A stretch of 64,000 bases of DNA from Rhizophagus irregularis (Eukaryota; Glomeromycota; Glomeromycetes; Glomerales; Glomeraceae): contig NC_089431.1 of the NCBI RefSeq assembly GCF_026210795.1, positions 1,674,001-1,738,000 of the forward strand, read 5' to 3'. How positions within the stretch are numbered: the first letter of the stretch is position 1; the number at the start of each line of letters is the position of its first letter. A model generated the notes under the pieces. It saw only the letters and a list, made by a program, of their open reading frames with translations. It was not told the DNA's origin and did not search any database. Of the stretch, positions 22,838 to 62,306 are shown in pieces. Made by a program: the position numbers and the translations under genes.

Positions 22838-23326
22838 ATGGCATTTAACCAAGCATATTCTGAATTGCTAGCTAAGTTACCAGCTTCCATAATAAATGAG
22901 GCATGGATTCGTCTCACATCACGGAAGCATAACCCATTATCTGAGAAAGAGGCCAGTGAAATTAATCCAATTGTAGAGTCATTTTTAAAACATGAAGCTA
23001 TTAGATATCAGAAAAGATTAATACGCCAGAGACGAACCCAAAGTTGGCCAGAATGCCCGACATCGTTCAAAAAAATACCATTTATATTTGTCTCAGATAA
23101 TGATACTCAAACTGATAATATCACTTGGCCGGAGGCGCTAAAGTATGATCACAAGGAAGAGAATAATCGCCGGGTTATGAATGAGCTTAAAGTACTATCC
23201 CAGCACCTGCTCGATTATAATAAAAGAACTTTCGAGAAGTTCATGCGAGATGTAAATCTAGAGTACAATGAGTGGGTTAATACAAATAAGAAAATGCGCT
23301 ATGAGATCAAAGATCTGAAGATGTAG
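22838..23326 (+). CDS. Coiled-coil hypothetical protein at the left of element A
   Basis: The preferred start is MAFNQAYSELLAKLP at 22838; a start 16 codons upstream also exists. About 162 residues, helical throughout, with an NPLSEKEASEINPIVESFL segment and a long charged C-terminal helix (NKRTFEKFMRDVNLEYNEW) that probably forms a coiled coil. It is convergent with the ATPase tail that follows on the other strand, which is why I place it in element A. Family unknown. It could be a structural or scaffold-like protein, but nothing shows that directly. Confidence 0.45.
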   Translation: MAFNQAYSELLAKLPASIINEAWIRLTSRKHNPLSEKEASEINPIVESFLKHEAIRYQKRLIRQRRTQSWPECPTSFKKIPFIFVSDNDTQTDNITWPEALKYDHKEENNRRVMNELKVLSQHLLDYNKRTFEKFMRDVNLEYNEWVNTNKKMRYEIKDLKM

Positions 23327-23369
23327 GTGCAGGAGGCGGAAAAAGAGCTGGCATCCATGAAGTCAGATT

Positions 23370-23526
23370 CTACTCGTCCAGCTTCAAAGGAGTAGCCCAA
23401 CCTAGTCTAATCGCTAATGGATCATCTATCGCCTTAGTAAAATCAAAAACTATAAAATTCTGATTTCGCAAATGCTTGTCAATAATCTTGGATGTCTTTT
23501 TCGGATCATCCGTATATTGACGCACA
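23370..23526 (-). pseudogene. Element A packaging ATPase, C-terminal part
   Basis: On the minus strand this encodes the end of an FtsK/HerA-type ATPase, with NFIVFDFTKAIDDPLAIRLG matching the corresponding stretch of element B's ATPase (EFVVFDLKRSKSDPLSIRVR). The part directly abuts the left terminal repeat of element B. The N-terminal part of the same gene abuts B's other end (46041-46645). Confidence 0.75.
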
Positions 23527-23530
23527 GTCG

Positions 23531-23990
23531 TCGGGCTGGGTGTGGGAGGTGCAAGCACCACCCACCTCCGGGTCTACGACCCGTCGCAGTACCTCCTTCC
23601 CCCTACGGGGGATCAGGAATCCCCTATATCTGTCACCATCTGTCAATAACATCAGTCATATAACAATATACTAAAAAAGGATAAATAAGGGAAAAGAGAG
23701 GAAAATACGATAGAATCAGAGGGGTATGACAGATATGACGGATATGACAGACGTTTCAGAAAAATCGGGAGAGGGGTATCCCCAGAAAAAAGTTTTGATT
23801 TTACCCCCCAGATCTGTCATTCTGTCATAGTTATGTCATATGATCAGGATTCCGTCTAATAATCTGTTGGAAGCAGTGAGATAGCAAACCAGATAAGTTA
23901 GCAGGTAAGCCCCTAGAAGGTCTATAAAGCCAGTAAGACCAACCCCGTCCCGCCCCCGTCAGAAAAAATAAGTAATTGAATAATGAGTAT
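23531..23990 (+). repeat. Left terminal inverted repeat of element B
   Basis: About 460 bp, matching the reverse complement of 45581-46040 with only a few differences. The outer ~100 bp is GC-richer and contains its own hairpin (GGTGCAAGCACC; CCCCCTACGGGGG). The middle has repeated ATGACRGATATGAC words near 23725-23755. The inner end reads GACCAACCCCGTCCCGCCCC and then an AT-rich tail. No coding is called within it. Confidence 0.9.
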
Positions 23991-24029
23991 TGAGAATAGA
24001 GCATATCCAGATAAGTTTAGAAGACAGTA

Positions 24030-24350
24030 CTAATCCGTCTTCCTCTTTTTTGCCTCCTTAAGGCATTTATCAATACACTGTTTACACGCGTCATCAGAAT
24101 CTAAGATTTTCTGTCCAAGTTTTTTGCATTGCCGATTGTAAGCCGTCTGCTGTCTCTTAGCAGCGGTTTCTTTCCTTTTCTCCTTAGTCTTCTTCTTGAT
24201 CACCCAGTCTATTCCAGTAAAAGTATTCTTATGCATACCACAAATTGTGCAGTCACCATGCAGCCGGTAACGCCCATTTGTAGTCATATCTTGTATTTCA
24301 CTAGCCGTCTCAGTTTCCTTCTTGCACTTTAGGCAGTAAAAACGTGTCAT
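24030..24350 (-). CDS. Small zinc-ribbon protein, DUF5679-like
   Basis: A protein of 106 residues. The N-terminal half, MTRFYCLKCKKETE ... NGRYRLHGDCTICGMHKN, has the CxxC...CxxC arrangement and spacing of the DUF5679 zinc-ribbon domain known from large DNA viruses and related elements. The C-terminal half is a Lys/Arg-rich helix with another CxxC (DACKQCIDKC). It lies just inside the left terminal repeat of element B, transcribed towards the end. Role unknown; nucleic-acid binding is the obvious guess. Confidence 0.65.
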   Translation of the reverse strand: MTRFYCLKCKKETETASEIQDMTTNGRYRLHGDCTICGMHKNTFTGIDWVIKKKTKEKRKETAAKRQQTAYNRQCKKLGQKILDSDDACKQCIDKCLKEAKKRKTD

Positions 24351-24394
24351 TTTAAGATTTGAAGTCTAAAACCATTCCTTTAATTTGTCGTAAT

Positions 24395-25486
24395 ATGTCA
24401 CACTTAGAGAATTACTATAAGTACTACAATCTCTCCAGAATATCAGCACGAATTCTAAAAGGTGAAGAGCACTACAACCTATACAAAAAGCCCCTAAAGG
24501 AAAAGTCAACAGAACGCCCAAAGGTAATTGTATGGAAACCAAATGCAACACATCAGGCAGATCTTGCAGAGATGCCAGTTGACCCCAAAGGATTCCACTA
24601 TTTTCTCGTAGTGGTGGAAGTTGCAGGAAAGAGAGTTGATGCAGAACCCCTAAAGGATAAGACTGCAAATAGAGTTCTAAACGGGTTTGTCAAAATCTAC
24701 AGAAGAAATCGTATCAAGCCTCCAACACACTGACTGGAGACGGACTCCGGATCAGAATTCACTAACGACCAGGTACGTGATTTTTTCCTGAACAGCCTAG
24801 GGGTAATGATGAGGTTCGGAGAGCCAGGAAGGCATAAACAGCAATCTTATGCTGAAAGAGCTATCCAAGCCATCCAAGAACCCCTTCTTAAACGAATGGT
24901 AGCACAGGAGTTGAAAACCGGGGTGACATCCATGGAATGGTCAGAAGATTTCCATAATATAGTGAGTAAAGTAAATGAACTCTGGCAGAGAAATCCCCCA
25001 GACATTCCGACAGGGTCACCCAAAGTGTCAAAAAAGACAGACCTCCTCTCTGAAGGAGCACGTGTCCGAGTAAAGTTAGATGAACCTATCTCAGTACTCG
25101 GTAATAAACTTCATGGAAAATTTCGTACAGGAGACATAAGATGGAATCCCAATATCCGTGTCATCAAAAAAATGATCCTCTCACCCGAACAGCCTCCTAC
25201 GTATCTTCTTGATGGGCCATATGGTCGATTAGGTGTATCCAGATGTGCATATACCCGAAAGGAATTGCAAGTAGTTCCTATTAATGAAAAGCCTCCACCT
25301 GACTCTGTGATAAGAGGACAACCTGAAAGATTTGTTCCTGAGCAGATACTTCGGCATCGCATTAGAAAAGGTCAAGACCAGTATTTGGTTAAGTGGGAGC
25401 GCTATCCAGACACTGAGGCTACTTGGGAACCTGCTGACCGGTTGAAGGAGGATGTCCCTGACTTAATTCGCAAATTTTGGGAATAA
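24395..25486 (+). pseudogene. Element B integrase region (rve core plus chromodomain)
   Basis: The start I favour is MSHLENYYKYYNLSR. The region shows the retroviral-type integrase core: a first-aspartate strand (THQADLAEMPVDPKGF), the second-aspartate loop (ETDSGSEFTND) and the glutamate helix (QSYAERAIQAIQEPLL), with a beta-rich DNA-binding stretch after it. It ends in a chromodomain (QILRHRIRKGQDQYLVKWER then TEATWEPADRL). This arrangement is usual for Polinton integrases, where the chromodomain may steer integration to chromatin. The reading frame is not intact. Divergent from the DUF5679-like gene and convergent with the protease gene. Confidence 0.8.
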
Positions 25487-25511
25487 AAAAAAATAGAAGA
25501 ATTAAAAGGTC

Positions 25512-26261
25512 TTATTTTTTGTCTCCTCGATTCACGTCAGAAACTATCGGGATAAAAACATTCTTCTCATTACAAGTAAGGGCGATATGTTCACGTGATT
25601 CATGGACATCATAATTGTAACGTTTCAGACACGTCCGGCTCAATCCAATCTCCCTATGCTTGTAATCGCTTAAAACCGCAAGATTCTCAGTGATTACACA
25701 ATCAGGGGTTAGTTTGATTGACACACCTTTTACCATGCCGAATGTCCTACCAGAACCCGGAGCGCCGGATATGTTATGTGTAATACTCTTGTCGATATCC
25801 AACCCTAATTCTTCAGCGGCTTCCCTCTGAATAAAAGACGCGTTAGCACAAGTGTCTGCTAAACACTGAATTGCTATCCCATTGACCTCCCCATCCAGCG
25901 CTAAAAGATCTTTAGTATTCTCCAAACGAGCTATGTCAATATCCATCAGGTCATCTTCCCTGATATCCTCTTCTTGTTTTTCCTCAACTAGGTCTTCAGG
26001 AATCTCCGTACTTTTACGAGCAGACTTTAATTCTTCCCGAAGAATCTCGCGGAGTAATTTTCTAAAATCTGCAGACCTTAATAAACTTAATGAATCATTT
26101 TTGGTGACGGCTTTTATAAGTGTGGGCTTACTACTAGTAACCTTCACAGGAATCTTAATAGGAGTCATTTTAACTGATTTTTTTGGAACAGATTTAAGAA
26201 GTTTCGAGATACTTACACCCTTATCCGAGTTTACTTTTTTTTTGTACTTCGAACCGCACAA
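25512..26261 (-). CDS. Element B retropepsin-like aspartic protease
   Basis: A frame of 249 residues. A basic, low-complexity N-terminus and an acidic helix (KSARKSTEIPEDLVEEKQEE) precede the protease fold. Its features are ALDGEVNGIAIQCLADTCAN (about 120-139), where the DTCA sits in place of the usual DTGA/DSGA, a flap-like glycine-rich stretch (GAPGSGRTFGMVKG), and a closing strand REIGLSRTCLKRYNYDV that resembles the ILG-x-xx-L-x-x-Y segment of retropepsins. It lies just downstream of the Gag-like region, overlapping its end, as pro follows gag in retroelements. Polintons known to me use an adenain-like cysteine protease instead. Confidence 0.65.
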   Translation of the reverse strand: MCGSKYKKKVNSDKGVSISKLLKSVPKKSVKMTPIKIPVKVTSSKPTLIKAVTKNDSLSLLRSADFRKLLREILREELKSARKSTEIPEDLVEEKQEEDIREDDLMDIDIARLENTKDLLALDGEVNGIAIQCLADTCANASFIQREAAEELGLDIDKSITHNISGAPGSGRTFGMVKGVSIKLTPDCVITENLAVLSDYKHREIGLSRTCLKRYNYDVHESREHIALTCNEKNVFIPIVSDVNRGDKK

Positions 26262-28413
26262 ATCCGAAAACCACCTTCCTCATCGGGAACAATTTTCAAG
26301 TCATCAAAACTTGCGGTATTAGTATCAATATCCATAGCATCATCATTAAGATCGAGGTTTCTCATTGCTCGGGCTAATTCCAGATCATCGCGTCTATCTT
26401 TAGCCTTCTGAAGTCTCTTTGGAAATCTTTTAGACGTCTCATATCCCATAATAAGATCAATAACATGTTGATCATCCTCACTAGTCCACTCAGGAGCATC
26501 AGGGTTACCAGGGTCATCACCAAAATCATGATCTACATAACCATCATCCCAATCAGGATCCTGATGATCCTGAACAACGCGTGGCCGTGGCTTTGGCCGA
26601 ACAGGTTTAATCTGTTGTCTATAGACCGGTGGTTTACGAACTGGCTTAGATGCTTGTAATTGTTTAAATTGTGCCTGGAAATTCTTGGTAAGTTCCTCGG
26701 CTTGTGCCATTGAGCAATTCTTGTAATCGTTCTTGAGTAATAACGTCTGTCGACCTTTGTATTACAGCACCTTTGTGTGGAGTCACGGGATGAGTATAGC
26801 CAGCCAATTCCTCTTTTTTAGCCTTTTCAATACCCTGACGCCTTTGTAATCCATAGAACATTTCGCCCTTTCGTCGCTCAAGATCACTCAATCTATCAAT
26901 TAATGTATTAAGAGGTGCCACCCCGATTCTGGAAGCTTCAATAACGTTTTCCGGCAAAAGTCCTCTATAGAACTGGTCAGTAACCATAATTCGATTATAT
27001 CCTACAATATCCCCAGCCCTCTCAACTCGCTTGTAGTAAGATCGAACAGGTTCACCTTGTTCCTGGTAAAGGTTACTAAATCGTATTTGAAGTCTTTCTT
27101 CCACGACGGTTGGAAAATTTGTGCGCATATGCATAAATGCTTGATCCAGGAGAATCCCCTGTAAGACTATTGGTTGATTCTGGACAGCAGCATTAAATGG
27201 ACCTCCATGATTTCCCAACCCATTAACGGGTTGATGAGTAGGACGTCCGCCCACACGTTTCCACTGCTCTTCAACTTTAAAATTCGTTCTAACGATATCA
27301 GCGCGTGATGGGAAAAATGCATTTCCAACGGTTACCGCCGCATTACCTGCAACCCTTGAATATACATCAGCATCAGACCCGGGTAAGTAAGTACCAACAT
27401 GTAATCCATTAGCAACCTCAGGAACAGCTAAAGCTCTGAACGCTCGGCGAGTAGCACCGGCTCCACCATTTGCAGTAGCCACTAACCGAATATTCGAGAG
27501 TTCCCAATTTTTTCCAGTAAGTTCTGCATCAAACCACCTCGCCGCTTCATCTCTCATACAGCTACGAAGAACCCCATCGCTCGCACCCGACCCGGAGGCG
27601 CACCGGCATCGTCCAATGGATCAATACCAACGGTATTAATATACCCTAAAAAGTTATCAATAAAAAGATTAAGATCTTCATCTTCCCGACCATGAAATAT
27701 AGGGGCAGCTATACCAACGGCAGCCATATCGTATTTTGTGGATGGTTGAGAGGAGGTGGAGGAGGGTTCAATTGTCTAATCCGAAACCATTGTACTTGGA
27801 TACGCAGAGCGGCTATTTGTTGGAAAAGTCAATTCCTAAGACGTCCCAATGTCCGAATTCCAAAAAGAACCCGATTATTGGCATATACAAGCCGATTTCG
27901 TGCCGCATCACGCTCGCCTATAGCTCTATTACGTTCACCTATAGCTCTATTACGTTCTCCTCTCATAAGATTATATTGCTGCTGAAGACGACAATTAGTC
28001 GTCCGCATACCACCAAACTCACGTTCCAATTCAGCCAAATTAGCTTCTAAACCAGTAATAGTATCTTGTACGTTATTTAGCTCATCTTGTGTAAGACCTA
28101 ACAAACCCGTTTGAACCTCGAGTTCATCTTGTAATTCATCACGTTCTTTTCGAGATCGATCGCGTTCTGCTTTTAATATATCGCGTTCTTCGTATGTTTC
28201 TCTACAGCGATGAATTAATAAATTAAGAGCATGTTTAAGACGATGGTTTGCATTTTGTACATCTCGATTAACAACCATGCGATCACTGACAGTTAAAAAA
28301 TCTGTTAGATCCTTAATTACCGCAACTAATGGTATATTATTCATATCACGCAAATCCCTAGGAGGCGGTCCAGTAGGCTCTGAAGGAGTATAAATTGCAA
28401 TTGGTGTCGACAT
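26231..28413 (-). pseudogene. Element B Gag-like capsid region
   Basis: Three parts are seen in order. A coiled-coil head begins MSTPIAIYTPSEPTGPPPRD and has a long heptad region with tandem GERNRAIGERNRAIGERD. The Gag-type domain follows: IFHGREDEDLNLFIDNFL, then DEAARWFDAELTGKNWELSN, and after a Gly/Ala-rich insert FMHMRTNFPTVVEERLQIRF and GEPVRSYYKRVERAGDIVGY. An acidic Pro/Arg/Asp-rich tail ends it. The domain order and motifs match the retrotransposon Gag family (compare PLFYGREDEDVTDWV and AAQWYNEM in the LTR element). No zinc knuckle was found in the tail. The region is broken. Divergent from the ATPase gene (32 bp apart). Confidence 0.7.
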
Positions 28414-28444
28414 CGTATTTAAACTAAGTTAGAATAAAATTCAA

Positions 28445-29668
28445 ATGGATCTTTATGTATACAATTTGGACGAGTACACGACCGACTCGAGACAGGGTAA
28501 TGAGTTTGCCCCATCATGGCCTTTCCGTCTTGCCGTAGTAGGAAGTTCTGACTCGGGTAAGACAACTATGATTATTAATTTGTTAATGGGAGACAAGAAG
28601 GCAAAGGAGGATGGCGAAAGGTACATATTATGTGATGCGGTAATTCTAGTTGGCAGATACCTCGATGAACCGAAGTGGGCAGTCGTACGTGATTTTTTCA
28701 AAGAAGAAGAAATTCCATTTACCACAGTATCCCATAGTGAGATTCCAAATGTTAAGGACTTCAACTCCACCCAGGCTACTGTGGTAATCTTCGAGGATTT
28801 GATGGATGCGCCTAAAAAAACCCAGGATCTCATCACTGGATTTTTTACACACGGGCGTCACAAAAATATCTCGTGTATCTATGTGGTCCAAAGATTCTTT
28901 GCCATTCCTAAGGCTATTCGAGAAAATGTTAACTACATCTCACTGCATGGAAATCATGAGAGCCTTACAGATACCAAGAGAATCATCCGCCTATATACAG
29001 AAGAATCAGAGTCATTAGCACCAGTAATTGATGATCTTACTCTGCAACGTGAATTTGTAGTGTTTGATCTTAAACGGTCCAAAAGTGATCCACTGTCCAT
29101 TCGAGTAAGATGGGATACTAGTCTCAGTTCGATCACAGAGCAATCTCAGTTCAATTCTAGTTCGATCTCAGTTCAATCTCAGTTTGATCCAAGTTTGAAC
29201 CCAGTTCGATCTCAGTCTGAACCCAGTTCAATCACAGTTCGATCCAAGTTTAGTCCCTATGGTCAGAAAGCTGTATTTGAAGCAAAAAAAGGTGGACACT
29301 TGATTGAATTTGCTCGGGTATTTCCATCCCCTAAAGAACGTCAACATTTACTTGTACCTAGTGTCTTAGCCAAGAATGCAGATACCTGGATTAAATATGT
29401 CTTTCGGGAAGCTTATGGACTCTCTGGTAAGACCCTAGGAGCTGACTTTCAGGATTTCTTAGCAAAAGTACAGGGTAGGACTGCAAAGACTGAAACTCTG
29501 AAAACTGAGAATGTGAAGGAGTTATTCTCCCGATATGAAGCCCTGAAGTCTAGTCGCCCTCTGGATAATAAACAAATAATAGAAGGTATTGAAGTCCTTC
29601 TACAGATCTTTTCTAAGAGCCACATGGACCGTCGAGCATTACAAGTAGGGATTAATAGTATCTTGTGA
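28445..29668 (+). CDS. Element B genome-packaging ATPase (FtsK/HerA type)
   Basis: An open frame of 407 residues. Walker A is VVGSSDSGKTTMIINLLMGD (about 31-50) and Walker B is TVVIFEDLMDAP (about 112-123), followed by HGRHKNISCIYVVQRFF, the arginine/sensor region typical of A32-like packaging ATPases. The core ends about residue 225. A Ser/Gln-rich linker with repeated QSQFD/QSEPSS units follows (about 228-275), then a helical C-terminal domain (about 275-407) not normally found in these ATPases. The family pumps viral DNA into preformed capsids. Its presence implies that element B once packaged DNA. A homologue, cut in two by element B, belongs to element A. Confidence 0.88.
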   Translation: MDLYVYNLDEYTTDSRQGNEFAPSWPFRLAVVGSSDSGKTTMIINLLMGDKKAKEDGERYILCDAVILVGRYLDEPKWAVVRDFFKEEEIPFTTVSHSEIPNVKDFNSTQATVVIFEDLMDAPKKTQDLITGFFTHGRHKNISCIYVVQRFFAIPKAIRENVNYISLHGNHESLTDTKRIIRLYTEESESLAPVIDDLTLQREFVVFDLKRSKSDPLSIRVRWDTSLSSITEQSQFNSSSISVQSQFDPSLNPVRSQSEPSSITVRSKFSPYGQKAVFEAKKGGHLIEFARVFPSPKERQHLLVPSVLAKNADTWIKYVFREAYGLSGKTLGADFQDFLAKVQGRTAKTETLKTENVKELFSRYEALKSSRPLDNKQIIEGIEVLLQIFSKSHMDRRALQVGINSIL

Positions 29669-30212
29669 GAATATCAAGTAATTCGTCTGCAGAAGCTCTA
29701 AGAATCATAGCACTTTTTTTACGGCCTTCAAAGTCAATCCTTAACATCTTAGCCTTCAACCCTATTGCTCCTAAAGCACGAGAAGCGAAGTTCTTAGTCA
29801 TTGGATTACTTATATGATTTACATAGTTCTCATAGAATGTAGTGAAAGGCTCGTCAATACCATCTGGATATGTATCCCTTAGAAATTGATATAAAGCAAT
29901 TTCTCCACTGTCATAACCTATGGCTATAAGCTGTTCGAGAAGCCACTTCCTAATATCTTCATATGGCTCTCCATCCATAATATTCATATCCAGTCTTTGT
30001 GTAAACAATCGTGTAAAGTCCACATTACTTCCCCGACGAATGATCTGAACTAACTTATCCCTAGCAAGTCCCAAGGCTTGTAGAGGGTCATTCTCATCAC
30101 TAATCTTTTTTATAATCTGTCTGTATAATACACTGGATAATCCTCTATATGCTGTTTTTGGAGTGATTACTCCATAGTTTTGGCATTGGTTTATTACGAT
30201 TGATGTTGACAT
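29652..30212 (-). CDS. Element B unknown helical protein (186 residues)
   Basis: Starts MSTSIVINQCQNYGVITPKT; the frame is open and well composed. It contains LSSVLYRQIIKKISDENDP and ends LLDILTRYY. It overlaps the end of the ATPase gene by 17 bp on the opposite strand. Mostly alpha-helical by composition, with no Cys/His clusters, signal peptide or membrane segment. It sits where minor capsid or assembly genes often lie in such elements, but nothing in the sequence proves this. Confidence 0.6.
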   Translation of the reverse strand: MSTSIVINQCQNYGVITPKTAYRGLSSVLYRQIIKKISDENDPLQALGLARDKLVQIIRRGSNVDFTRLFTQRLDMNIMDGEPYEDIRKWLLEQLIAIGYDSGEIALYQFLRDTYPDGIDEPFTTFYENYVNHISNPMTKNFASRALGAIGLKAKMLRIDFEGRKKSAMILRASADELLDILTRYY

Positions 30213-30257
30213 GGCTATCTTTCTTTATGTAAAAAAGAATTATTCAAAATTAAGTAA

Positions 30258-30836
30258 CTATTCGGAGCAGTCCTTGCACAACTTGTCCGTTAAGTCACTT
30301 GGGCTTACAGGCATGAGACATTCCCTACACAACTCAATATTAAGCTCTGCAAGTCTCGGGGTATGGTCCTCCAAAATTCGTGGACGACCGGAAGGACCGA
30401 TAGTTGTCATATCAGTCATATCCTGCTGTAAGATAAAATCATCATATTCATCTTGATCAGCCTGAATAGCAGTCCTGATTTGTTGTATATCATTGAAAGT
30501 TAACCGCTGTCCATCAAGATTTTCCTCATTATAGCGTGTTTCATTGATGATTTCCTCTATAAGCGCCTCTTCTTCATAATGGACAAGGTAGTAATCCTCA
30601 ACTACCTCATAGTCACTCTCAATCAGTCTATGATATGTTTTAGTACCACGTCGAACATAACGTCCTGTATCTGTATTTAAATATACAGGTTGCTCTTCAG
30701 GTGGAGGTGCAGTTTGTCTACGGACAAGCCTTCCATCAATATAATCATGGGATTCCATAACTATTCGATTAAAGGTATCTCCACCGATAATAATTGGACG
30801 TCCAGTTATAGGGTTAGCTATATAAGGGTAAGACAT
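30258..30836 (-). CDS. Element B protein with two 2-cysteine-adaptor-like motifs and a C-terminal zinc cluster
   Basis: A protein of 192 residues. The N-terminus reads NPITGRPIIIGGDTFNRI, which fits the NPxTGRxIxxGGxxFxxL signature of the 2-cysteine adaptor domain of nucleocytoplasmic large DNA viruses. A second, looser copy is at about 50-72 (NTDTGRYVRRGTKTYHRL). The middle is very acidic. The C-terminus has CRECLMPVSPSDLTDKLCKDC, a likely zinc site. The family is thought to tether partners in viral structural or assembly proteins. Upstream is a row of hairpin repeats, now separated from it by the LINE. Confidence 0.65.
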   Translation of the reverse strand: MSYPYIANPITGRPIIIGGDTFNRIVMESHDYIDGRLVRRQTAPPPEEQPVYLNTDTGRYVRRGTKTYHRLIESDYEVVEDYYLVHYEEEALIEEIINETRYNEENLDGQRLTFNDIQQIRTAIQADQDEYDDFILQQDMTDMTTIGPSGRPRILEDHTPRLAELNIELCRECLMPVSPSDLTDKLCKDCSE

Positions 30837-31186
30837 GTCTTTTTTCTGTATGTGTCTACATACCTAATAGTTTTCTTCAATTTACAATAACCAAGTGACA
30901 CGGTCATCAGTCCTTATTAAGGCAAACATGGCATAGTAGCCTTTATCTTTATTAAAATTATTTATCGAACTTACAAAAATAATATAAAATTTTCAAAGTA
31001 CAAAAAAAAAATAAAATTAACTAAAAACAAAACTATATAGTCTCCAAAACAGTAATAAAGCTATAAAATTAATTCGAAAAGGAAAAAATCGCATAACACT
31101 AAAACTATCCTGATCCTCCGCCTAGATATATTCCAACCTAAGAAGAAGCAACTATGCAAACAAACCAACGAACAATGCGCCCATTG

Positions 31187-50853: not shown

Positions 50854-51019
50854 AGAAGGAGAGTGAATCCGAGAAATTATCCTCTAAAGAGATGTCTAGT
50901 GCCAAGCTGAGAGAAATACCACTAGAGGAGACTATTCGTAAAGTCCTTCATAGTGAGCTTAAACTAATCTTCCCCCACATTTTTTCCAAGATTCTGGTCT
51001 CATTGCGTCCAAACAGATA

Positions 51020-52690: not shown

Positions 52691-52730
52691 GTTTTTTTTA
52701 ATATACTAGCAACTAAGCCGAAAAAAGGCT

Positions 52731-53729
52731 ATGACCAATGTGTATACCTTGAAAGATATTAATAATAAAGGTCATCGGCTTGGTAGTGCGTATGAGCAAG
52801 AGCTCGAAAAAAAATTGTATACCACTCTTAGTTCTAAAGCCGAAATTAATGATCTTTGTGAAAAGTTGTTGGCTAAAAATTCAGAGTATTCGGAGCGAGA
52901 GGAGGATATTGAAAATAAGATTAGCCAGTTAAATACGTCCAGTACTAAAGTTAGATCCCAACTCATTTCTGAACGGAAGTCTCATTCTGAAAGTCAACGT
53001 GGACTTGAAGCCAAATATACTGCTGAAATCCAATCGCTCAAATCAGAGATTAAAACACTGAAGAGAAAGGCGACTTTGGCCCAGAAAGCTTCGTCCGCTG
53101 ACAAGGTCCAGATTCTTTCTCTTGAAACTAAAATACGCGAATTGGAAGGTAAGTTGGAGGACATAGATCTAGAGCGTACATATCATGATTTGGATGTAAT
53201 GGGAGGGGTGGTAGAAGAGCCGGCCCAAATAAGCTCATCCGAAATAGAATCTCTCAGGCTTAAATTGGAACGAGCGAATGAGGACCGTAATTCGAAAGAA
53301 TATACAATAGAATATATGGAAAAAGGGATAGAAGCAACACATGAGATAACCAGTCGGAAAATAGATAGCCGGTCTTCAGAACGATTAAAATTAATGGAGG
53401 AAAATAGGTCCCTCAAGGACCAGTTAGCGTTAAAGAAAAATACTTCGTCCCAAATAATTTCAAGTGAGGGGATTCCTTTGGAATCAGGTGGCGCAGAAGC
53501 AGTACCATTGTCCCAAGAAATATCTCTAGCACCGGCTATTCCTGTCGTTGCGAGTTCTCTAATATTGCCGATGATAACATATTCCATGCTTGCCTTACTA
53601 CTGATTGTGGTTATATGGCTCGTGGTCAGGAAATGGTGGAATCTATGGGGTATGAATAAAAAAAATGATCGATATTTCACACACGAAAAATATATAAATA
53701 GGCCAGATATTTATTATCTCAATACCTAA
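52731..53729 (+). CDS. Element A coiled-coil protein with C-terminal membrane anchor
   Basis: An open frame of 332 residues. It is almost entirely heptad-repeat helix from about 20 to 245 (for example LETKIRELEGKLEDIDLERT; SEIESLRLKLERANEDRNSK). A short Pro/Ala/Ser linker follows, then one hydrophobic segment (ILPMITYSMLALLLIVVIWL, about 279-300) and a basic tail (VVRKWWNLWGMNKK). There is no signal peptide, so it is a tail-anchored type with most of the protein cytosolic, or a virion-envelope-like stalk. It could be a fibre or membrane-tethering protein; no family is recognised. Confidence 0.6.
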   Translation: MTNVYTLKDINNKGHRLGSAYEQELEKKLYTTLSSKAEINDLCEKLLAKNSEYSEREEDIENKISQLNTSSTKVRSQLISERKSHSESQRGLEAKYTAEIQSLKSEIKTLKRKATLAQKASSADKVQILSLETKIRELEGKLEDIDLERTYHDLDVMGGVVEEPAQISSSEIESLRLKLERANEDRNSKEYTIEYMEKGIEATHEITSRKIDSRSSERLKLMEENRSLKDQLALKKNTSSQIISSEGIPLESGGAEAVPLSQEISLAPAIPVVASSLILPMITYSMLALLLIVVIWLVVRKWWNLWGMNKKNDRYFTHEKYINRPDIYYLNT

Positions 53730-53733
53730 TCGA

Positions 53734-54372: not shown

Positions 54373-56501
54373 TTATCTATTTAAGTACTTTGCTAGCACC
54401 TCTGACCCAGTTATATCCTCAAGATGGAAATACCATAAATTATTAATGTCGTCTAATGCCCCAATTTCTGATATATGAGGTAAGGCAGGTAGGTCAGCAA
54501 TTATCTCATTTTTTCGCATGGATGAAACTGGGCCGATTTCTTCTGGAATTGATACATGCTCTTTATAACGCATATGATAGACCAATTTGTGAAAGAATAA
54601 ATTATACTCTTCAATACATTTTGCAAGCTCGCTAGGATATCGAGCAAAATCAGAGCATATTTTTTCCCTCATTTCGTCATCTACTGAGAGGTTTTTATCT
54701 TTTGAAATTTTCCTAACGCATTTCATAAATGTCTCCCATAATACCTCGATAGGGTTGCTTGCCATGAAAATCTCATAGCTAAGCCATTTACCATAAAATA
54801 TTTCATATGAACTACCTATCTTTTGATACAACATTTCTTGTGCTTCTATGACAGCGTTTCTATAGGCGCATTTATAAGCATTTCCACGGGATACCATTAT
54901 CTTGGAAGTAATACCATTAACTATGATATTCTCCTTCACAAAACCCTCAAGCCATGATTTGGCTTTCTTTTGAGCATGGTCATCTATTTGCTTATATTTC
55001 TCATCCGGATCCTTAATTTGCATTATTTTATCTGAGGGGGTCGGCTCATGTCTTTTATCATACATGATAAATCGGGCACAGAGACCAATGATAGTTTTTT
55101 CGTAATAATGATATAAATCTAACTCCTTACCCAATTCCTTAGCTACGTCCACAAATTCCATTTTCTCGCCTTTAGTTGGTTCTAACTTTCTACCATGTAA
55201 ATCAAAAGTCGTATCTGGATGAGTTACTACGTAACTAAAGCGCCCACCTGGTACCAGAATCTTAGTATCATATTTTCCTTTCATTCATCCTATAAAACGC
55301 TGAACAGCTTTGTTATCTTTATCAGGTTTCCAAGCGTCAGTCTCTATAAATTGTTCAAAATTCCACTGCTCATGATTAATTATAGCATCCCTGAGAACGT
55401 CTTCAACAATCTCATGGAGTGATTAGACGTTATTAATATCCATAGCCCTTCGCATAATACGATCCATATAGTTTTGAAAACTTGGGATTTACCCTGCTTC
55501 ACAGTATCTATTCCCCTTATAAAAGGCTCTCTTGGTTCGAAGTTAGGAGTCTCTTCATGGTCAATGCCAAAATATTTTTTCTTTTCGGTAAACGCTACTG
55601 GAAATAGTACTTCCTCGTAGGCTATTTTAAGATAATCCGACCTAGTCTTGAGTCTGAGGAAAGTGTTCACATCATTGCGCAATTTTTCCATTACACCCAT
55701 AGTAGTCTTGACCATCTCAGTCCAATACTCTAGTTTAGAGATTTCTCCCTCCCCATCATTATAAGCCAGTTCGTATTTCTCATAGCAGGAATCTGGACAA
55801 ATGAGATATAAGGAATCGGTATCACCGTATTTTATCCTAAAGCCTTTCTTTCTAACGTACTCTGCAACACGTTTGATAATTTCTTGCCCAGCCAAAGTAA
55901 CACCTCCAGCAAGTTCGAGTATGTAGAATGGGGAACCACTTCTGCCCGTCACACCATAGAATGAATTCATATACAATTTAATGGCTTTCTGCTTAGAATT
56001 TAAAGAATCATAGGCAAAGCAGACAGAACTGTATTCTTTTATAAAATTATCATATGATAAATCAATAAAAGGATCTAAGATTTTAACCATCTCAGCACGC
56101 TTCTTCACATTCTTCGTCGAGGACAAAACATCTTTGATTGCGTCCGCTATTGAGATAGATCCGCTGGCATGATCCCAAAGGGATCCATCCATTCTACTTT
56201 TGACCTTTCCCATATATTTCTTTTTCTTTCCAACATCAGCAAGTTTGAAAAGCGTTGATTCACACCAGTATACGCGTTGATCAACACCAGCTAGTTGTTC
56301 AACATGATTAACAATATTAATCAACACCCATATATTGGAGTATATCAGCGCATAATGTTAATATACGCGTCGTTCAACTCTAATTTGTAGTGCAACACAT
56401 TATGCATTGTTGTTCAACGCACTGTATATTAACGCATATATATGATTACATGTGTATATTTTAATTAAATTATATTTATTTATTTATTTTTACTCACCTT
56501 A

Positions 56502-56565
56502 GGAACCGAACCGGTTACCTCAACTTACAATATCATATCTCACGATCTAACCACTGTACTATTTA
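56502..56565 (-). ncRNA. tRNA-like segment with RNA polymerase III boxes (SINE head or tRNA fossil)
   Basis: On the minus strand, TAGTACAGTGGTTAGATCG reads like a tRNA D-arm with box A, and GGTTCGGTTCC (56502-56512) fits the box B consensus GGTTCRANNCC closely. The spacing of about 30-35 bp between boxes is right for a tRNA or tRNA-derived SINE. I cannot pair a full acceptor stem, so I do not call a functional tRNA. Confidence 0.5.
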
Positions 56566-56999
56566 ATTTAAGTATAATATACATTTATTAAAATTAGTAT
56601 TTAAAAAAAAAATCATTTCGTCAATACTATAATGGCCGTACTCTATATCACATGTATCACGTGATACTGGATTACTGCTGCGGACTGCGGTATAGCAAAA
56701 AAAGAAATTAAGCTTTTTTTAGCAAAGCTTAATTTTTTTTTGCTTTTCTTCGTTCTCTCCTTCCCTTTCGTTTTCCCATTACCCCTTCGTTCTCCCCTTC
56801 CCTTTCGTTTCATTCTTTTCCCTTTCGTTCTCCCCTTTCTCCCCTTTCCTTTATAAAAGTTTTATCCATTATTTCTATAAAAACTCCGTAAAAATGAGCC
56901 TTCACGGATCCATTCACAGAAAATGTAATAAGTGGATAAATTCCGTAATATAAGGTCATTAATTCCGGAGATATGAGCCTTTTACGGAAAAAAGTTTGG

Positions 57000-58020
57000 T
57001 GAGTTTCGCAACGAAACGTTGCGAAACTATTTATTCATTTTTTAACGAAACGTTTTTTAACGTTTCGAAATATTTTTTTAAAAATTCTTTTAATCGGAAC
57101 GTTGGCTAACGTTCCGATTATTTTTTTTATTTCATTTTTAATCGGAACGTTGAAAAACATTCCGAAATATTATTTTTTTTTAAAATTATTTTAATCGGAA
57201 CGTTGGCTAACGTTCTGATTAATTTTTTTACTTCATTTTTAATCGGAACGTTGAAAAACGTTCCGAAATATTGTTTTTTAAAAAATTCTTTAATCGGAAC
57301 GTTGGCTAACGTTCCGATTTTTCATTAAAAATATTTTGAAATGTTTTTAGCGTTTGAAATATTTGTTTTATTTTTTTAATCGGAGCGTTGTCTGCGTTCG
57401 AAATATTTGTTTTTTCATTTTTTTAATCGGACGTTGGCTAAGCGTTCCGATTTTTCATTAAAATTATTTTGAAAGCGTTTTTAACGTTTGAAATATTTGT
57501 TTTATTTTTTTTAATCGAAGCGTTGGTTAGCGTTCCGATTTTTCATTTTTAGCAAAGCGTTTTTTAGCGTTTGAAAATATTTTTTTTTCTTTTTTTTAAT
57601 CGGAGCGTTTTTAGCGTTCGAAACAATTTTTTTTAATTTTTTTAATCGGAACGTTGGCGTTCCGATTATTTTTTTATTTTACTTTTTTAACGAAACGTTG
57701 AAAAACGTTTCATTTATTCTTTTTTTTTAACTTCTTTAATCGGAACGTTGTCTAACGCTTCTGATTTTTTTATTTTTCATTTTTTTTAACGAAACGCTTT
57801 TTAACGCTTTCGAAAATACATTTTTTTTTATTTTTTTCTTAATCGGAACGTTGGCTAACGTTCCGATTTTTTTTGTATTTCATTTTTAATGAAACGTTTT
57901 TTAACGTTTCGAAACTTTTTTTTTTGATTTTTTTTTTAATCGGAACGTTGGCTAACGTTCCGATTTTTTTTATTACATTTTTTAACGAAATGCTTATTAA
58001 CGTTTCGTAATTTTTTTTCA
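57000..58020. repeat. Array of short perfect hairpins separated by T-tracts
   Basis: Roughly two dozen stems in 1 kb. Three types recur: AATCGGAACGTTGGCTAACG continuing to its mirror (12-bp stem, GGCT loop); CGAAACGTT...AACGTTTCG; and CGGAACGTTGAAAAACGTTC continuing to its mirror. They alternate and are separated by 10-25 bases of mostly T. No coding potential is seen. Confidence 0.75.
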
Positions 58021-58044
58021 TTTTTTTTTCCTTTCTTCTTTTAG

Positions 58045-59015
58045 GTCAGCGGGTGGACTTCCGAGTTCCGAAGAACGGAAAACCAAGATTTGTAAGATAA
58101 GTACGAATCTTGGTTTAATTTTTTTTTTCTTTTTTTTTTAATATTATTAATGAACGGTTACTAATAACCGTTCTTTTCTTTTTTAGGTTTCGGGCGGCTT
58201 CCTGGTTCCGAAGAACGGAAAAGAACCAAGATTCGTAAGTATATACGAATCTTGGTTTTGTTTTTTTTTGTTTTTTTTTTAAAAAAATATTATGAACGGT
58301 TACTAATAACCGTTCTTTACTTCTATTTTTTAGGTTTCGGGCGGCTTCCTGGTTCCGAAGAACGGAAAAGAACCAAGATTCGTAAGTATATACGAATCTT
58401 GGTTTTGTTTTTTTTATTTTTTTTTAATATTATGAACGGTTACTAATAACCGTTCCTTTCTTTTTTATAGGTTCGGGTGGACTTCGGACAAACGGGAGAA
58501 CCAAGATTCGTAAGTACGAGTACGAATTTTGGTTTTTGTTTTTTTTTTAATATTTTGGAACGGTTTACTAACCGTTCCTTTCTTTTTTCTTTTATAGGTT
58601 CGGGTGGGCTTCCCAAGAACGGAAAAACCCAAAGATTCGTAAGAATCTTTATTTTTTTTCTTTCTTTGTTTATTATTATGAACGGTTTACTAACCGTTCT
58701 TTCTTTTTTCTTTTATAGGTTCGGGTAGGCTTCCCAAGAACGGAAAACCCAAAGAATCGGTAAGTTTTGAATAAAACACGTTTTTTATTTTTATTTTTTT
58801 TATTTTTTTTTAATTTTCTCTTTTCTTTTTGTAGGTATCGATTCTTTCGGCTTTGGGACTTGGATATGCCGATATGGTAAGTTTCGATATTCGAAACTTA
58901 CATTTTTTTAATTATTTTTTTTAATTTTATTCTTTAAGAAACGTTCTAACTGAACGTTTCTCTTTTTTGTAGGCCTAGATTTTCTTTTCGGCGCTCTGGA
59001 TTTTTCTTTTGTAGG
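58045..59015 (+). repeat. Tandem array of ~40-48-nt mini-exons with strong intron signals
   Basis: Exon-like blocks lie at 58045-58091, 58187-58234, 58334-58381, 58471-58509, 58598-58638, 58719-58759, 58835-58876 and from 58973. Each is preceded by a long T/C tract ending TAG and followed by GTAAG(T). The spacers (about 75-100 nt) contain TACTAAT or TACTAAC about 20-30 nt before the acceptor, the classic branch-point consensus, in the first six cases. The blocks share GGCTTCC...AAGAACGGAAAA...CCAAGATTCG. The 48-nt version reads VSGGFLVPKNGKEPRF in one frame, but all three frames are open. The 41-nt blocks change phase. Whether it is transcribed is unknown. Confidence 0.55.
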
Positions 59016-59681
59016 TCAGCTTGATGGTTATTTCGACCCTTGAGCGAATGAATAATGGAAGATAATTCCTCAATCCTCAATGTGAATATTAAACCACTTG
59101 ATGTTGTTAAGACACATACGACGAGATTTGGTTTTGATTTTTATCATGAAGGAGCATAATATTAATATAATTATCGAGGGAAAGTTCATATTTCCACCTT
59201 GTTATGGTTGTGTCACTAGGGGCGCTATGTCAACGGAATTTTAGTACGTTAATCGCTTAAAAATCCGCGGCAATCCAATTATAACAAGAGGATGAATTTT
59301 TACAATTTTACATGATTAGATATTGTATTTGTATTGTACTGTATTCTATAAATAAATTTACAATGTTTTACAATTTAAAAATTTTAAAATATACACGTTA
59401 ATAATATACAATAATATATATGTTAATAAATTACTAATACTACAATTAAAGTTAACTATCGTACGATGACTAAAAAATACTATTGCTACCATTGCTATAC
59501 GTGTTTTTAATATCAATATACGCGTTTTTATACATTGTATACGCATTTTTAAACTATCGTTGTTTTACTATGTGTAGCTTTACACTTAAATGGGTGTTGT
59601 TTTACACGTTTTTAAACATTTTTAAGTGGTGTTGATTGACAAAGGGTTCGTTTCCCTACGTTTTTTGGCGTTAAGCAACAC
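59016..59681. other. Right part of the 3.5-kb insertion, no gene seen
   Basis: AT-rich sequence. Near the right end there are repeated TACACGTTTTTAA / ATACGCGTTTTTA words (59400-59620) and GTGTTGTTTTACACG, typical of subterminal repeats. Short open frames here look like chance. Confidence 0.45.
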
Positions 59682-61994
59682 ATGGTGTTTTTCAACACTT
59701 TATACACCTGTTTAAAACTTGCTGATGAATGGGCTTTAGCTGGGCTTTTATTTCATTTCGCATTCTCCCCAATCTCTCCAATATCTTTGGGAAAAGACCT
59801 TTCTGATCAGGCTTATTGCCGTATAGTCCAGGCTCGTATAGGATTACCATTATACTTGAACTCGATATTGTGGAGTACTTTATTTTCTCTTTCTAACTCA
59901 TCTACTTCCGAAAGTGTTGAGACCATCTTCTCGGGTGAGAGGTTGTAAGTCATAATTATGCTAGGGTATAAGGAAGCGAAGTCCAAACCTGTGACAGGAC
60001 GTTTATTTTCGAGACCCTTTACTGGCGGGAAAACATATGCTCCCGGAAACTTCCAGATGCTTTCTGATCGGAAGTTTTCATGCTGAATAGTATGTCCTGG
60101 GTCCATGCTTCAGCACCCAAGAGGTTGGATACTTTTGTCCTTATGGCATAATAATGTGTATCAAATAGAGTTATATATGCTATCGAAGCAACTTCTCTAT
60201 AATCATTTATTATATTATGCCTGACCGCGAGCTCCTGACAACGTAAGGCGTCTATGGTACAGTAATTAGCTATTTCGTGCATATTTTCAGTGGAAGAGTC
60301 TGAAATCCTACCCCTCGCTTCTGAATAGTACTTCCATAATTTGCTTATAGGTAAATCGGCTTTGCTGTCGAGACCACAATCTTCTAAGAAGTATTTGAGT
60401 GATCTTCTCTCTGAACGGGGGAAAAGTTGCAACAAACTCGCGCAAACGTCAATTGGTACGCATCCGGGAAGCTTAAGAAAAGATGATTCAAAGTTCAAAT
60501 TATTGGTACCAAATTTGATGTTAATAGATTCACGACCTTCTGTTCTTCTGAAGTTCCTGTCCGTTTTCTTCGCCCATTGGTCCCTATGAAAGAAACCACT
60601 GCTTAATGGCTTTTCAGTTCCACTGAAATAATTCCAAATGAGGATGGATTGAATATTGGCTGTCTTATGCAGATTTGCTGACATTTGTTGGACCATCCAG
60701 TCGAGAACCTTTAATTTTGTAGCCTTCTCCACTATAAATGGCCAATCATATCCAGAATCGTTAAAGCCAAGCTGGATGTCTGGGGCAAAGATTTCCAACA
60801 TAGAGCAAATGCCTTTAAGAGATTGGTCTGATTCCCGCATATGATGATCATGCAACGTGGATCTGGTGCCGTCTCAACATCAACGAGACGTATTTGTTCT
60901 AGTGGTTTTGGGTCATCTTTCCAGTGAACCATCATACAGATCATAAAAACTTGAGCTGTATCATTTTCTGCTTGTGGGAAATTACCTAACTCACGCGAAT
61001 CGTATGTTTCTATGTCCCATGTTAGAACTAATGCTCGGTCACGAGAAAAGAGAGAAGATGGATAAATTTTATAAAGTGGTTCAAAATCAACTATGGGTTG
61101 GAAATTACCAATGTGAACATAAAATGCATGCGGACAATGTTGGGATTTTGCATAATAAGGTGCACTGAAATTATATTTGTAGTCGCTTATTAACCCCATC
61201 CGGAAAGTGGTATTCTATACTTTCTTGCGACTTTACGGTAATATGTGCCCGTATCATCTGAAGCGGTTTCTATTCTATTTTCTTGATCGACCTTCGAATT
61301 ATAGTTTGAAATGATATTGAGAGCAGTGAACCTTATATCTTTATTAGGTGCAATGATGCGAAGATAAGACTTTTTTTCCGCATGGTAGCCACGAATAGGA
61401 TATGCCTTTATGCACTCCCTTCAGATCAGATTCATGTTTACTCTATTCCCCTGGCTGTCTTTTTTAGTAGCGAGTAAGTGCTTTATTTTGGACCAGAATT
61501 TAGGAATACTTGCATTTTCAGGAACGCGAATATCAAAAAATATCTTGATACTAGTAATGGTGACGACTGCCTTCTGGCCATTAACGAGATGTCCATAGAT
61601 TCGAAGAACATAATGGGGGATTTTATTAACATTCTCTTTGGCTTCTTCTATGTCGTATGACACGAATGGAATATCTCGACGATTCGCTATCTCAACTTTG
61701 AGAGTTAAAGTTGACCCCTCATCATTTCTCATAGCTAATTTATTACGGGTTGAGAAACCCGCCAAGTAATTCTCACCGCCATATCTGATTACCTGACCCA
61801 ATGATGTTTTTTCTTTTTCAGCCTCTAGGTGAAAAAGGGTGGGGGTGTTAGAGGAGAGGAACTCTGAAAGCTCGAAATGTTCGGCCATTTTTTTCGAAAG
61901 ATTTATAGTTATACCAAATCTCAAGGTATATTATTCGCAAGAAAAAAGTTTAAAATGAAAATAATTCCCCAACATTATTAATTGATATATACAA

Positions 61995-62306
61995 ATGGGA
62001 GGCAGAAAAAAGCTGACACCTTGGAATTTTTATTATTATCCATATATTCTTAGGACTGGAGAAGTGTGCAATCGGAGATGCTATGATCCAAAGGGATGTA
62101 AAGTCCATCGAAATTCTAGGCAAGTTCTTTGCAAAGAACCCAGGTGTAAAGAGAATACAAGATCCAAATATGACTATTGCGATACGCATGCAAAAAAACA
62201 TAGATCAAGGGAACATTATCATCAGAAAAAGCAGGCTAAGTTGGCTTCGACAGAGATACTGGTAGGTAATTTAGATATAAACAAAAATAATACGACTTGT
62301 CACTAG
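61995..62306 (+). CDS. Element A Cys/His-rich small protein
   Basis: A protein of 103 residues. It contains CNRRCYDPKGCKVHRNSRQV then LCKEPRCKENTRSKYDYCDT and HAKKH, a regular C3H-C2...C-H pattern that suggests two zinc sites, followed by a Lys/His/Gln-rich tail. Divergent from the polymerase gene (70 bp apart), so the two may share a promoter. Likely nucleic-acid binding. Not a family I can name. It is the last gene I attach to element A. Confidence 0.55.
   Translation: MGGRKKLTPWNFYYYPYILRTGEVCNRRCYDPKGCKVHRNSRQVLCKEPRCKENTRSKYDYCDTHAKKHRSREHYHQKKQAKLASTEILVGNLDINKNNTTCH

What the first reader, a model, noticed from the sequence alone, without database searches (positions are those of the whole stretch)
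22838..62306. Two Polinton-like DNA elements that carry a retrotransposon-type Gag and aspartic protease instead of a jelly-roll capsid and cysteine protease
Both element A and element B contain, side by side, a Gag-type domain (FYGRPGEDPEDFLRDF / FHGREDEDLNLFIDNF, then KQWYETNIKGKNW / ARWFDAELTGKNW), a retropepsin-like protein right after it, an rve integrase, an FtsK/HerA packaging ATPase and a family B DNA polymerase. Polintons are known for double jelly-roll capsid, penton and adenain-like protease genes; none is visible in either copy. Because two diverged copies share the arrangement, a chance retroelement insertion is unlikely. I infer a lineage of DNA virus-like elements whose capsid module is of gag-pro origin. 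I do not know of a description of such a group.
Basis: partly seen in the sequence, partly recalled or inferred. Interest (0 to 1): 0.93.

Follow-up and report, generated by a model that had tools for sequence, protein, structure and literature searches.

The report
Fungal DNA transposons with retrovirus-type capsid genes
Large virus-like DNA transposons in an arbuscular mycorrhizal fungus carry a retrotransposon-type capsid and protease gene where their relatives carry a jelly-roll capsid gene, which could explain why nobody has found a capsid gene in them.

Summary
The elements are nested. A (23527-46044; 464-bp terminal inverted repeats, 5-bp duplication) sits in the ATPase gene of B, a roughly 38-kb family ending at 63884. 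Both carry rve integrase, A32-type ATPase and family B polymerase, with a Gag (coiled coil, CA; B-type relatives add a CCHC knuckle) and a retropepsin-like protein. Backbones differ: A has a PF03175 polymerase and D5-like helicase, B an asfarvirus-like polymerase. Gag lies at fixed spacing on the opposite strand at 91 of 101 A-type ATPase loci (random 0.6) and near 19 of 37 B-type polymerase loci. CA against the genome's LTR Gag: 96%, E 2e-9, shuffles at most 0.5%. Best structural matches of the A model are retroviral-type CA C-terminal domains. A complete 14.3-kb A copy shows no reverse transcriptase hit, no LTR-like repeat, no unassigned ORF over 202 aa. CA often behaves like a swapped cassette. 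Best reading: gag-pro replaced the jelly-roll capsid module. Gag homology and its place in the elements are shown; particle formation is inferred; the A protease has an unusual active site; nearly half of B is unread. Ten paper searches listed no prior description.

The parts
23527..46044 (.). Element A: Polinton-like element with TIRs, 22.5 kb here, with a LINE insertion; a family member without it is 14.3 kb
   Evidence: TIRs; complete relative C17:3685861-3700184; TIR copies genome-wide
23527..23990 (+). Element A left terminal inverted repeat, flanked by 5-bp duplication GCACA at 23522-23526
45581..46044 (-). Element A right terminal inverted repeat, flanked by GCACA at 46045-46049
24030..24365 (-). 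A: small DUF5679 protein
   Evidence: equivalent ORF in L069 scores PF18930 3.9e-17
24356..25486 (+). A: rve integrase with C-terminal chromodomain; this copy has an in-frame stop at about 24733, the C17 relative is open (376 aa)
   Evidence: PF00665 0.0034, PF00385 2.5e-17; open relative PF00665 5.5e-9, PF00385 4.3e-17
25512..26279 (-). A: retropepsin-like aspartic protease, active site DTCA
   Evidence: PF13650 4.4e-8, PF13975 2.3e-6; DTCA in 83 of 83 A-set proteins that contain the site, 37 of 120 do not contain it
26231..27829 (-). A: Gag (CA domain plus C-terminal region), frameshifted near 27620 in this copy
27829..28428 (-). A: coiled-coil N-terminal part of Gag
   Evidence: many database models carry Gag and the aspartic protease in one protein, often 640-860 aa
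28433..29668 (+). A: A32/HerA-type packaging ATPase
   Evidence: PF04665 4.4e-12; 101 merged loci in genome
29652..30224 (-). A: 190-aa protein, probably helical, function unknown
   Evidence: no Pfam hit in this copy; C17 copy has a weak Gag_p24_C match, PF19317 0.0037, below cut-off; low-confidence all-helix model, pLDDT 40.5
30258..30863 (-). A: 201-aa protein with 2-cysteine adaptor motif
   Evidence: PF08793 0.00091, below cut-off
39293..39718 (-). A: F-box-like small protein
   Evidence: PF00646 0.0089, below cut-off
39803..40279 (-). A: 158-aa unknown protein
   Evidence: nothing convincing
40387..42275 (-). A: family B DNA polymerase of the PF03175 type (two frames here, one 629-aa ORF in the relative)
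   Evidence: PF03175 1.1e-4, below cut-off, and 1.7e-7, above it, in L070
42389..45016 (-). A: D5-like helicase-type protein
   Evidence: PF19263 (DUF5906) 5.7e-17; PF03288 0.0038, below cut-off
45896..46705 (-). B: A32-type ATPase, cut by the insertion of A; the B part starts at about 46050, and the rest of the gene lies at 23365-23526
   Evidence: PF04665 6.7e-9; both parts align to L072
46693..48357 (-). B: rve integrase (554 aa)
   Evidence: PF00665 1.9e-8
48364..49215 (+). B: coiled-coil N-terminal part of Gag
   Evidence: 95-100% aa identity to L049
49216..50457 (+). B: Gag CA domain and linker; stops in this copy
50458..50853 (+). B: nucleocapsid-like CCHC region (knuckle altered in this copy, intact in L049 and L066)
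   Evidence: zf-CCHC 0.0098 and 0.021 in relatives, below cut-off; CCHC pattern in 25 of 44 B-set proteins
50963..51607 (+). B: retropepsin-like protein, DSR in this copy
   Evidence: DSG 9, DTG 5, DSR 4 among 44 relatives
52710..53729 (+). B: coiled-coil protein with a hydrophobic, transmembrane-like stretch near the C-terminus (by eye)
   Evidence: conserved in L071; no Pfam hit there
54373..61930 (-). B: degraded asfarvirus-like family B DNA polymerase, interrupted by repeats at about 57.0-58.8 kb
   Evidence: exonuclease PF03104 2.6e-5; L071 relative PF00136 4.8e-37; best PDB relative of L071 8ywg 2.9e-105
63835..63884 (.). B: right end, perfect 50-nt palindrome
19565..23526 (+). B: conserved left-side ORFs and (minus strand) the remainder of the ATPase gene

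Best explanation
These are Polinton-like, DNA-replicating, self-integrating elements in which the virion module (double jelly-roll capsid, penton, adenain-like protease) is absent as far as read, and a gag-pro module of Ty3/Gypsy-type origin stands in its place. Proposed cycle: the element's own PolB (A with a D5-like helicase; B with an asfarvirus-like polymerase) copies the DNA; the Gag polyprotein assembles through its CA domain; the retropepsin matures it (plausible for B-type copies with DSG or DTG, doubtful for A with DTCA); the A32/HerA ATPase pumps the linear DNA into the shell; the rve integrase inserts the DNA, making a 5-bp duplication in A. Shown: gene content, Gag homology, fixed gene order in many copies, long open frames, dN/dS below 1 on A-type CA, three A copies whose TIRs are 100% identical, and no RT hit, LTR-like repeat or jelly-roll-sized unassigned ORF in a complete A element. 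Inferred: that Gag forms a particle, that the particle holds the element's DNA, and that the protease is active.
Confidence: 0.72

Rival explanations
1. The gag-pro genes are a true part of the elements, but Gag does not make a DNA-filled virion. It works inside the cell, for example in nuclear import of the integration complex, in carrying element mRNA between nuclei of the coenocytic mycelium (Arc-like), or in interfering with LTR retrotransposons or rival elements.
For: Gag-derived proteins do such things elsewhere (recalled: Arc, PEG10). B-type Gags carry an RNA-binding type CCHC knuckle. The A protease has an altered active site. No particle is known.
Against: A packaging-type A32 ATPase lies beside gag in most A copies (91 of 101) and at 75 of 88 A32 hits overall. 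No jelly-roll-sized unassigned ORF in A, so no other obvious capsid candidate. dN/dS below 1 on CA.
Confidence: 0.2
2. The Gag parts are separate retroelement insertions or hitch-hikers that happen to sit in the DNA elements.
For: R. irregularis is full of Gypsy-type gag: 150 scored Retrotrans_gag matches.
Against: Fixed spacing and orientation at 91 A-type and 19 B-type loci; no direct repeat and no RT hit in the complete A element. The element Gags share a long segment between the two CA parts (median 129 residues in 47 of 52 rows, against 43-45 in nine LTR Gag copies of two families), so they form their own group.
Confidence: 0.02
3. B-type elements (about 38 kb) still hold an unrecognised jelly-roll or other capsid gene in their unread left part, and Gag is an added gene; only A has truly replaced its capsid.
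For: 18 of 37 B-type PolB loci lack a gag found by this query.
Against: No Capsid_NCLDV hit in the genome (but its control did not ring). PMC10640383 reports no MCP in five strains by tBLASTn and HMMs. Ten further ORFs of B copies (L071, L072, L075, window left) gave no capsid family in Pfam, though Pfam may lack Polinton-type capsid models.
Confidence: 0.12
4. The A elements are satellites that depend on a helper virus for their capsid, and gag has another function.
For: A D5-like helicase together with PolB recalls virophages and Polinton-like viruses; an asfar-like endogenous region exists in one strain (PMC10640383, passages).
Against: Helper-dependent virophages encode their own capsids (recalled). 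No helper MCP was detected in the genomes. Many copies: 101 ATPase loci, three copies with 100% identical TIRs.
Confidence: 0.05

Closest known systems
Polintons / Mavericks
   Same: TIR-bounded, 14.3 kb (A), rve integrase with chromodomain, viral-type family B polymerase, A32-type ATPase
   Different: No jelly-roll capsid or cysteine protease found, penton not settled; gag and retropepsin instead; 5-bp rather than 6-bp duplication in the two copies checked; D5-like helicase. PMC7805220 says Polintons of Glomus intraradices (R. irregularis) have no detectable MCP (passage), so these are probably the same elements, with the missing capsid gene now proposed.
Virophages and Polinton-like viruses
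   Same: Family B polymerase with D5-like helicase and packaging ATPase (comparison recalled)
   Different: Capsid module of a different origin; no virophage MCP seen in A
Ty3/Gypsy (Metaviridae) LTR retrotransposons
   Same: Gag CA, CCHC knuckle in B-type, retropepsin, rve integrase
   Different: No LTR-like repeat or reverse transcriptase hit in a complete A; integrase divergently transcribed from gag; DNA polymerase present; long extra segment inside CA
Dispersed asfarvirus-like polB genes of R. irregularis (PMC10640383)
   Same: The B polymerase is most similar to 8ywg, 1206 aa (that this is the asfarvirus enzyme is recalled). B-type PolB hits fall at 37 loci; the paper reports 15-33 copies per genome (passage)
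   Different: Here 10 of the PolB loci lie in paired-end elements, nine of them with gag; 19 have gag nearby. The paper reports A32 and MCP as not detected and reads the polB copies as signs of infection
Domesticated Gag genes (PEG10, Arc)
   Same: Gag CA without reverse transcriptase
   Different: Host genes there (recalled); here part of a mobile DNA element with its own polymerase
Capsid-swapped DNA viruses such as Bidnaviridae (recalled)
   Same: Polinton-type replication genes combined with a foreign capsid
   Different: Parvovirus capsid there, retroviral-type Gag here

Membership tests
Polinton/Maverick (for A) | rve-type integrase | tested here: met
   open 376-aa ORF: rve 5.5e-9, chromodomain 4.3e-17
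Polinton/Maverick (for A) | protein-primed-type family B DNA polymerase | tested here: met
   PF03175 1.7e-7, short (629 aa); protein priming itself not testable
Polinton/Maverick (for A) | long terminal inverted repeats | tested here: met
   461-464 bp
Polinton/Maverick (for A) | 6-bp target site duplication | tested here: not met
   5 bp in the two copies looked at
Polinton/Maverick (for A) | A32/FtsK-HerA packaging ATPase | tested here: met
   PF04665 4.4e-12, 3.2e-9 in L069
[quoted passage not shown]
   complete 14.3-kb copy has no unassigned ORF above 202 aa; Pfam on its ORFs
Polinton/Maverick (for A) | penton (single jelly-roll) protein | tested here: inconclusive
   190-aa and 158-aa ORFs unassigned; single-sequence model of the 190-aa protein is all helix but pLDDT 40.5
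Polinton/Maverick (for A) | adenain-like cysteine protease | tested here: not met
LTR retrotransposon | LTRs and reverse transcriptase | tested here: not met
   complete A copy has TIRs, no direct repeat of 60 bp or more and no RT hit; the LINE in window A is an insertion absent from that copy
Retrotransposon/retroviral Gag | CA domain of retroviral fold | tested here: met
   CA-CTD; N-terminal half less certain
Retrotransposon/retroviral Gag | CCHC zinc knuckle | tested here: met
   B-set 25 of 44 proteins; A-set 0 of 120, so not met in A
Retropepsin | D-T/S-G catalytic motif | tested here: inconclusive
   met in 14 B-set proteins (DSG 9, DTG 5), DSR in 4; not met in A (DTCA 83 of 83)
Asfarviridae (for B) | asfarvirus-like PolB | tested here: met
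   8ywg 2.9e-105 against pol delta 1.5e-12; no tree made; identity of 8ywg recalled
Asfarviridae (for B) | double jelly-roll MCP | tested here: inconclusive
   PF04451 no hit but control silent; nearly half of B unread

The most novel reading that the evidence does not exclude
A lineage (or several) of fungal double-stranded DNA viruses that build their virion from a retroviral-type Gag shell instead of a jelly roll. CA is exchanged as a cassette between elements, and one related gag module serves both a Polinton/virophage-like and an asfarvirus-like replicon. It would be the long-missing capsid of dsDNA viruses of fungi.
Probability: 0.5. Interest if true: 0.96.

Novelty: new variant of a known kind. 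Interest (0 to 1): 0.88.

Why it matters
Polintons are placed near the root of most eukaryotic dsDNA viruses because of their jelly-roll capsids (recalled). Several Polintons, R. irregularis ones among them, were set aside as having no detectable capsid gene (PMC7805220, passage), and the asfarvirus-like polB genes of the same fungus were left without MCP or A32 (PMC10640383, passages and section 9). This finding offers a concrete candidate for both: a gag-pro module. It would be the first case I know of in which a non-reverse-transcribing DNA element took over a retroviral-type capsid, and it makes the question directly testable in a culturable symbiont.

Tried and rejected
Separate retroelement insertion: rejected by recurrence and by the absence of LTR-like repeats and RT hits in a complete A. 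Chance motif resemblance: rejected by shuffled and reversed profile controls. A 6-bp duplication, my first reading, was corrected to 5 bp on comparing two copies. Relatives in viral contigs: none for PolB (single, P0276, alignment) or ATPase; the Gag alignment was too variable to search with. Structure of the 190-aa ORF: uninformative. Capsid_NCLDV in the genome: no hit, but the control did not ring. No tree of Gag or PolB was made. Literature: searches, judged by the listed titles and starts of abstracts (20 or fewer rows each), plus passage look-ups in ten papers and one section of one of them; nothing described Gag in Polintons. Preprints and most subscription papers are not held.

Rows left out of counts. 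One search used all rows, merged to 111, 101 and 95 loci. Searches left out the rows at the bottom that are A-type gags (30-39% identity); one search also left out fragment rows of loci already listed. One search used 59 of the 101 PolB rows and gave 19 of 35 loci; one search used all 101 and gives 19 of 37, which is the figure quoted. One search used 28 of 74 end rows (the rest are palindrome halves, partial repeats or the neighbouring host repeat); 8 of the 28 found no partner. One search left out about the last 30 weak rows of 150 integrase hits. The genome searches scored only part of their candidates, so counts are lower bounds. One search used 19 of 29 loci and 147 of 171 pairs (dS limits 0.02-1.5). 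In one search five truncated rows were left out of the segment lengths.

Full report
WHAT AND WHERE. The window is G000:C3:1674001-1738000 of a 146.7-Mb, 32-contig genome. Contig lengths such as 7,995,222 and 5,223,174 equal those given for R. irregularis proteins, and near-identical proteins carry R. irregularis names. I therefore take the host as Rhizophagus irregularis.

ANATOMY OF A. Inverted repeats of 464 bp at 23527-23990 and 45581-46044 bound A. Its ends GTCGTCGG / GATGAC are flanked by GCACA on both sides. A second copy on C17 has ACACT on both sides. Both are 5-bp duplications; I first noted 6. The window copy contains a LINE insertion (31187-39024). A copy without it, C17:3685861-3700184, is 14.3 kb with 461-bp TIRs. 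Its ORFs are DUF5679, integrase with chromodomain (376 aa), protease (257), Gag (492), coiled coil (270), A32 ATPase (411), 190 aa, 202 aa with a 2-cysteine adaptor motif, an F-box remnant (96), 158 aa, PolB (629), a D5-like helicase (865) and 125 aa (Pfam). No unassigned ORF is large enough for a double jelly-roll capsid, no RT family is hit, and no direct repeat of 60 bp or more was found in either of its two stretches. Three pairs of TIRs about 14.3 kb apart, two on C17 and one on C24, are 100% identical, and other pairs are 91-97% identical to the query TIR, which speaks for recent movement.

ANATOMY OF B. A sits inside the ATPase gene of B: the two parts of that gene, at 46074 onward and at 23365-23526, match adjoining stretches of the C30 copy, whose own ATPase is split over two frames. 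The collinear order in window and C30 is ATPase, integrase, Gag-Pro, coiled-coil protein, PolB. Homology ends at window 63884, in a perfect 50-nt palindrome. A genome search with this end allowed ten opposite-facing pairs; six are 37.7-40.9 kb apart, four are longer, among them the window copy, 85.7 kb with its insertions. The B polymerase is of the PF00136 type. Its best solved relative, 8ywg, scores 2.9e-105, against 1.5e-12 for pol delta; that 8ywg is an asfarvirus enzyme is recalled.

IS IT PART OF THE ELEMENT. A-type: 91 of 101 ATPase loci have gag within 3 kb, on the opposite strand, offsets -1,715 to -2,376; 84 of 111 gag loci have PolB within 25 kb; 72 have all three; random placement gives 0.62 (maximum 4 in 200 runs). 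B-type: 19 of 37 PolB loci have gag within 15 kb, the nearest always on the opposite strand at about -4.0 to -8.7 kb; of 10 paired-end elements 9 hold gag and PolB, the tenth PolB only. Of 88 A32 hits genome-wide, 58 lie by an A-gag, 17 by a B-gag and 13 by neither; random mean 1.4, maximum 7 in 500 runs. Of 91 B-like gag loci, 71 have an integrase within 7 kb; of 116 integrase loci, 46 have no B-like gag, and most B-like gag loci (69 of 90) have no B-type PolB within 15 kb, so B-like gag also serves elements of other kinds, family C among them. Nineteen open A-type gag copies have median dN/dS 0.31 (147 pairs, range 0.07-0.92, not corrected for relatedness).

THE CA CASSETTE. Between the B window copy and the C30 copy the coil is 95% identical, CA 37%. 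Protein P0139 against L049: coil 96%, CA 36%, after CA 74%. P0162: coil 83%, CA 32%, after CA 34% of 59 residues. P0140: coil 52% of 116 residues, CA 34%, after CA 73%. The other way round, R. clarus P0122 and P0125: coil 77%, CA 92-93%, after CA 73%; P0133: CA 87%, after CA 41%. In A, two Gag types about 45% identical sit beside ATPases 88-94% identical to A's, and the window A element is a recombinant: type-1-like at 97-100% over 25600-28800, type-2-like at 98-100% from 29000. CA is thus exchanged as a unit or diversifies fast. The element Gags also share a long segment between the two CA parts, median 129 residues (range 73-155, 47 of 52 rows) against 43-45 in nine LTR Gag copies of two families, which argues for common descent of A and B Gags apart from those LTR Gags.

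HOW IT MAY WORK. A packaging ATPase next to a capsid-type protein and a maturation-type protease is the virion module of a Polinton with its capsid and protease exchanged. In PMC4028283 nine elements without MCP also lacked protease and ATPase (passage); here the ATPase is kept. This is the main reason for reading Gag as a true capsid. Against an easy reading: the A protease has DTCA in 83 of 83 proteins with the site, DSR occurs in 4 B-set proteins besides the window copy, and A Gags have no CCHC knuckle (0 of 120).

SPREAD. Named B-like Gag relatives are all from Glomeromycota (R. irregularis, R. clarus, R. diaphanus, Glomus cerebriforme, Diversispora, Dentiscutata, Cetraspora, Entrophospora; 44 hits); a few hits are unnamed. 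The 120 of 207 A-type Gag hits that were listed are from R. irregularis, one R. diaphanus and a few unnamed. A-type PolB has many unnamed metagenome relatives at 52-81% (120 of 189 listed). No viral contig matched.

LITERATURE. PMC7805220 (one passage): Polintons of Glomus intraradices have no detectable MCP. PMC10640383 (passages and section 9): asfarvirus-like polB in 15-33 copies per genome, no MCP and no A32 detected in five strains; here do find A32-type ATPases in this genome. PMC10120064 excluded fungi from its survey (passage). PMC8647823 (passage) lists Maverick among recent expansions in R. irregularis. None of the ten search listings showed a Gag-bearing Polinton by title or abstract start.

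VERDICT. The capsid function is the unproven step.

Noticed in passing
window 26664-27620 and 49216-50457; database proteins P0122, P0125, P0133, P0139, P0140, P0162: The CA domain of Gag often behaves as a cassette: e.g. coil 96%, CA 36%, after CA 74% identical within the species, and coil 77%, CA 93%, after CA 73% between species.
   Followed up: partly
window 23527-46044: Element A is a recombinant of two A subtypes, with the crossover at about 28.8-29.0 kb in the ATPase gene.
   Followed up: yes
window 25512-26279 and A-type relatives: The aspartic protease active site is DTCA, not DTG/DSG, in 83 of 83 A-set proteins that contain the site.
   Followed up: partly
L069:6533-7102 (window equivalent 29652-30224): The 190-aa protein of A has a weak, below-cut-off match to Gag_p24_C (PF19317, 0.0037) in the C17 copy, none in the window copy: possibly a second Gag-like protein, or chance.
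   Followed up: no
L060-L068 and similar loci: A further family (C), roughly 30 integrase loci at about 92-100% identity, with gag-CCHC-pro ORFs and a divergently transcribed integrase, but no A32 hit noticed beside it; its polymerase and packaging genes are unknown.
   Followed up: no
e.g. G000:C8:3487170-3497401, C11:3839019-3847604, C7:4474669-4483349: B-type PolB and integrase loci with no gag found by the B query: a more divergent Gag or a different capsid could sit there.
   Followed up: no
window 63835-63884: B ends in a perfect 50-nt palindrome, repeated at the ends of other B copies, reminiscent of hairpin-ended linear DNA.
   Followed up: partly
window 31187-39024: LINE-like insertion in element A: a 1611-aa ORF with endonuclease/reverse-transcriptase look (by eye, not scanned) and two further ORFs.
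   Followed up: no
window 3464-14158: LTR-retrotransposon-like insertion with identical 300-bp ends and a Retrotrans_gag hit at about 8489-8797, inside the left part of B.
   Followed up: partly
window 57000-58810: Imperfect repeats of about 100 bp with TCGGAACGTT-type palindromes, interrupting the degraded B polymerase gene.
   Followed up: no
P0183-P0284: Many unnamed metagenome proteins 52-81% identical to A-type PolB, one cluster with 139 members; their source organisms are unknown.
   Followed up: no
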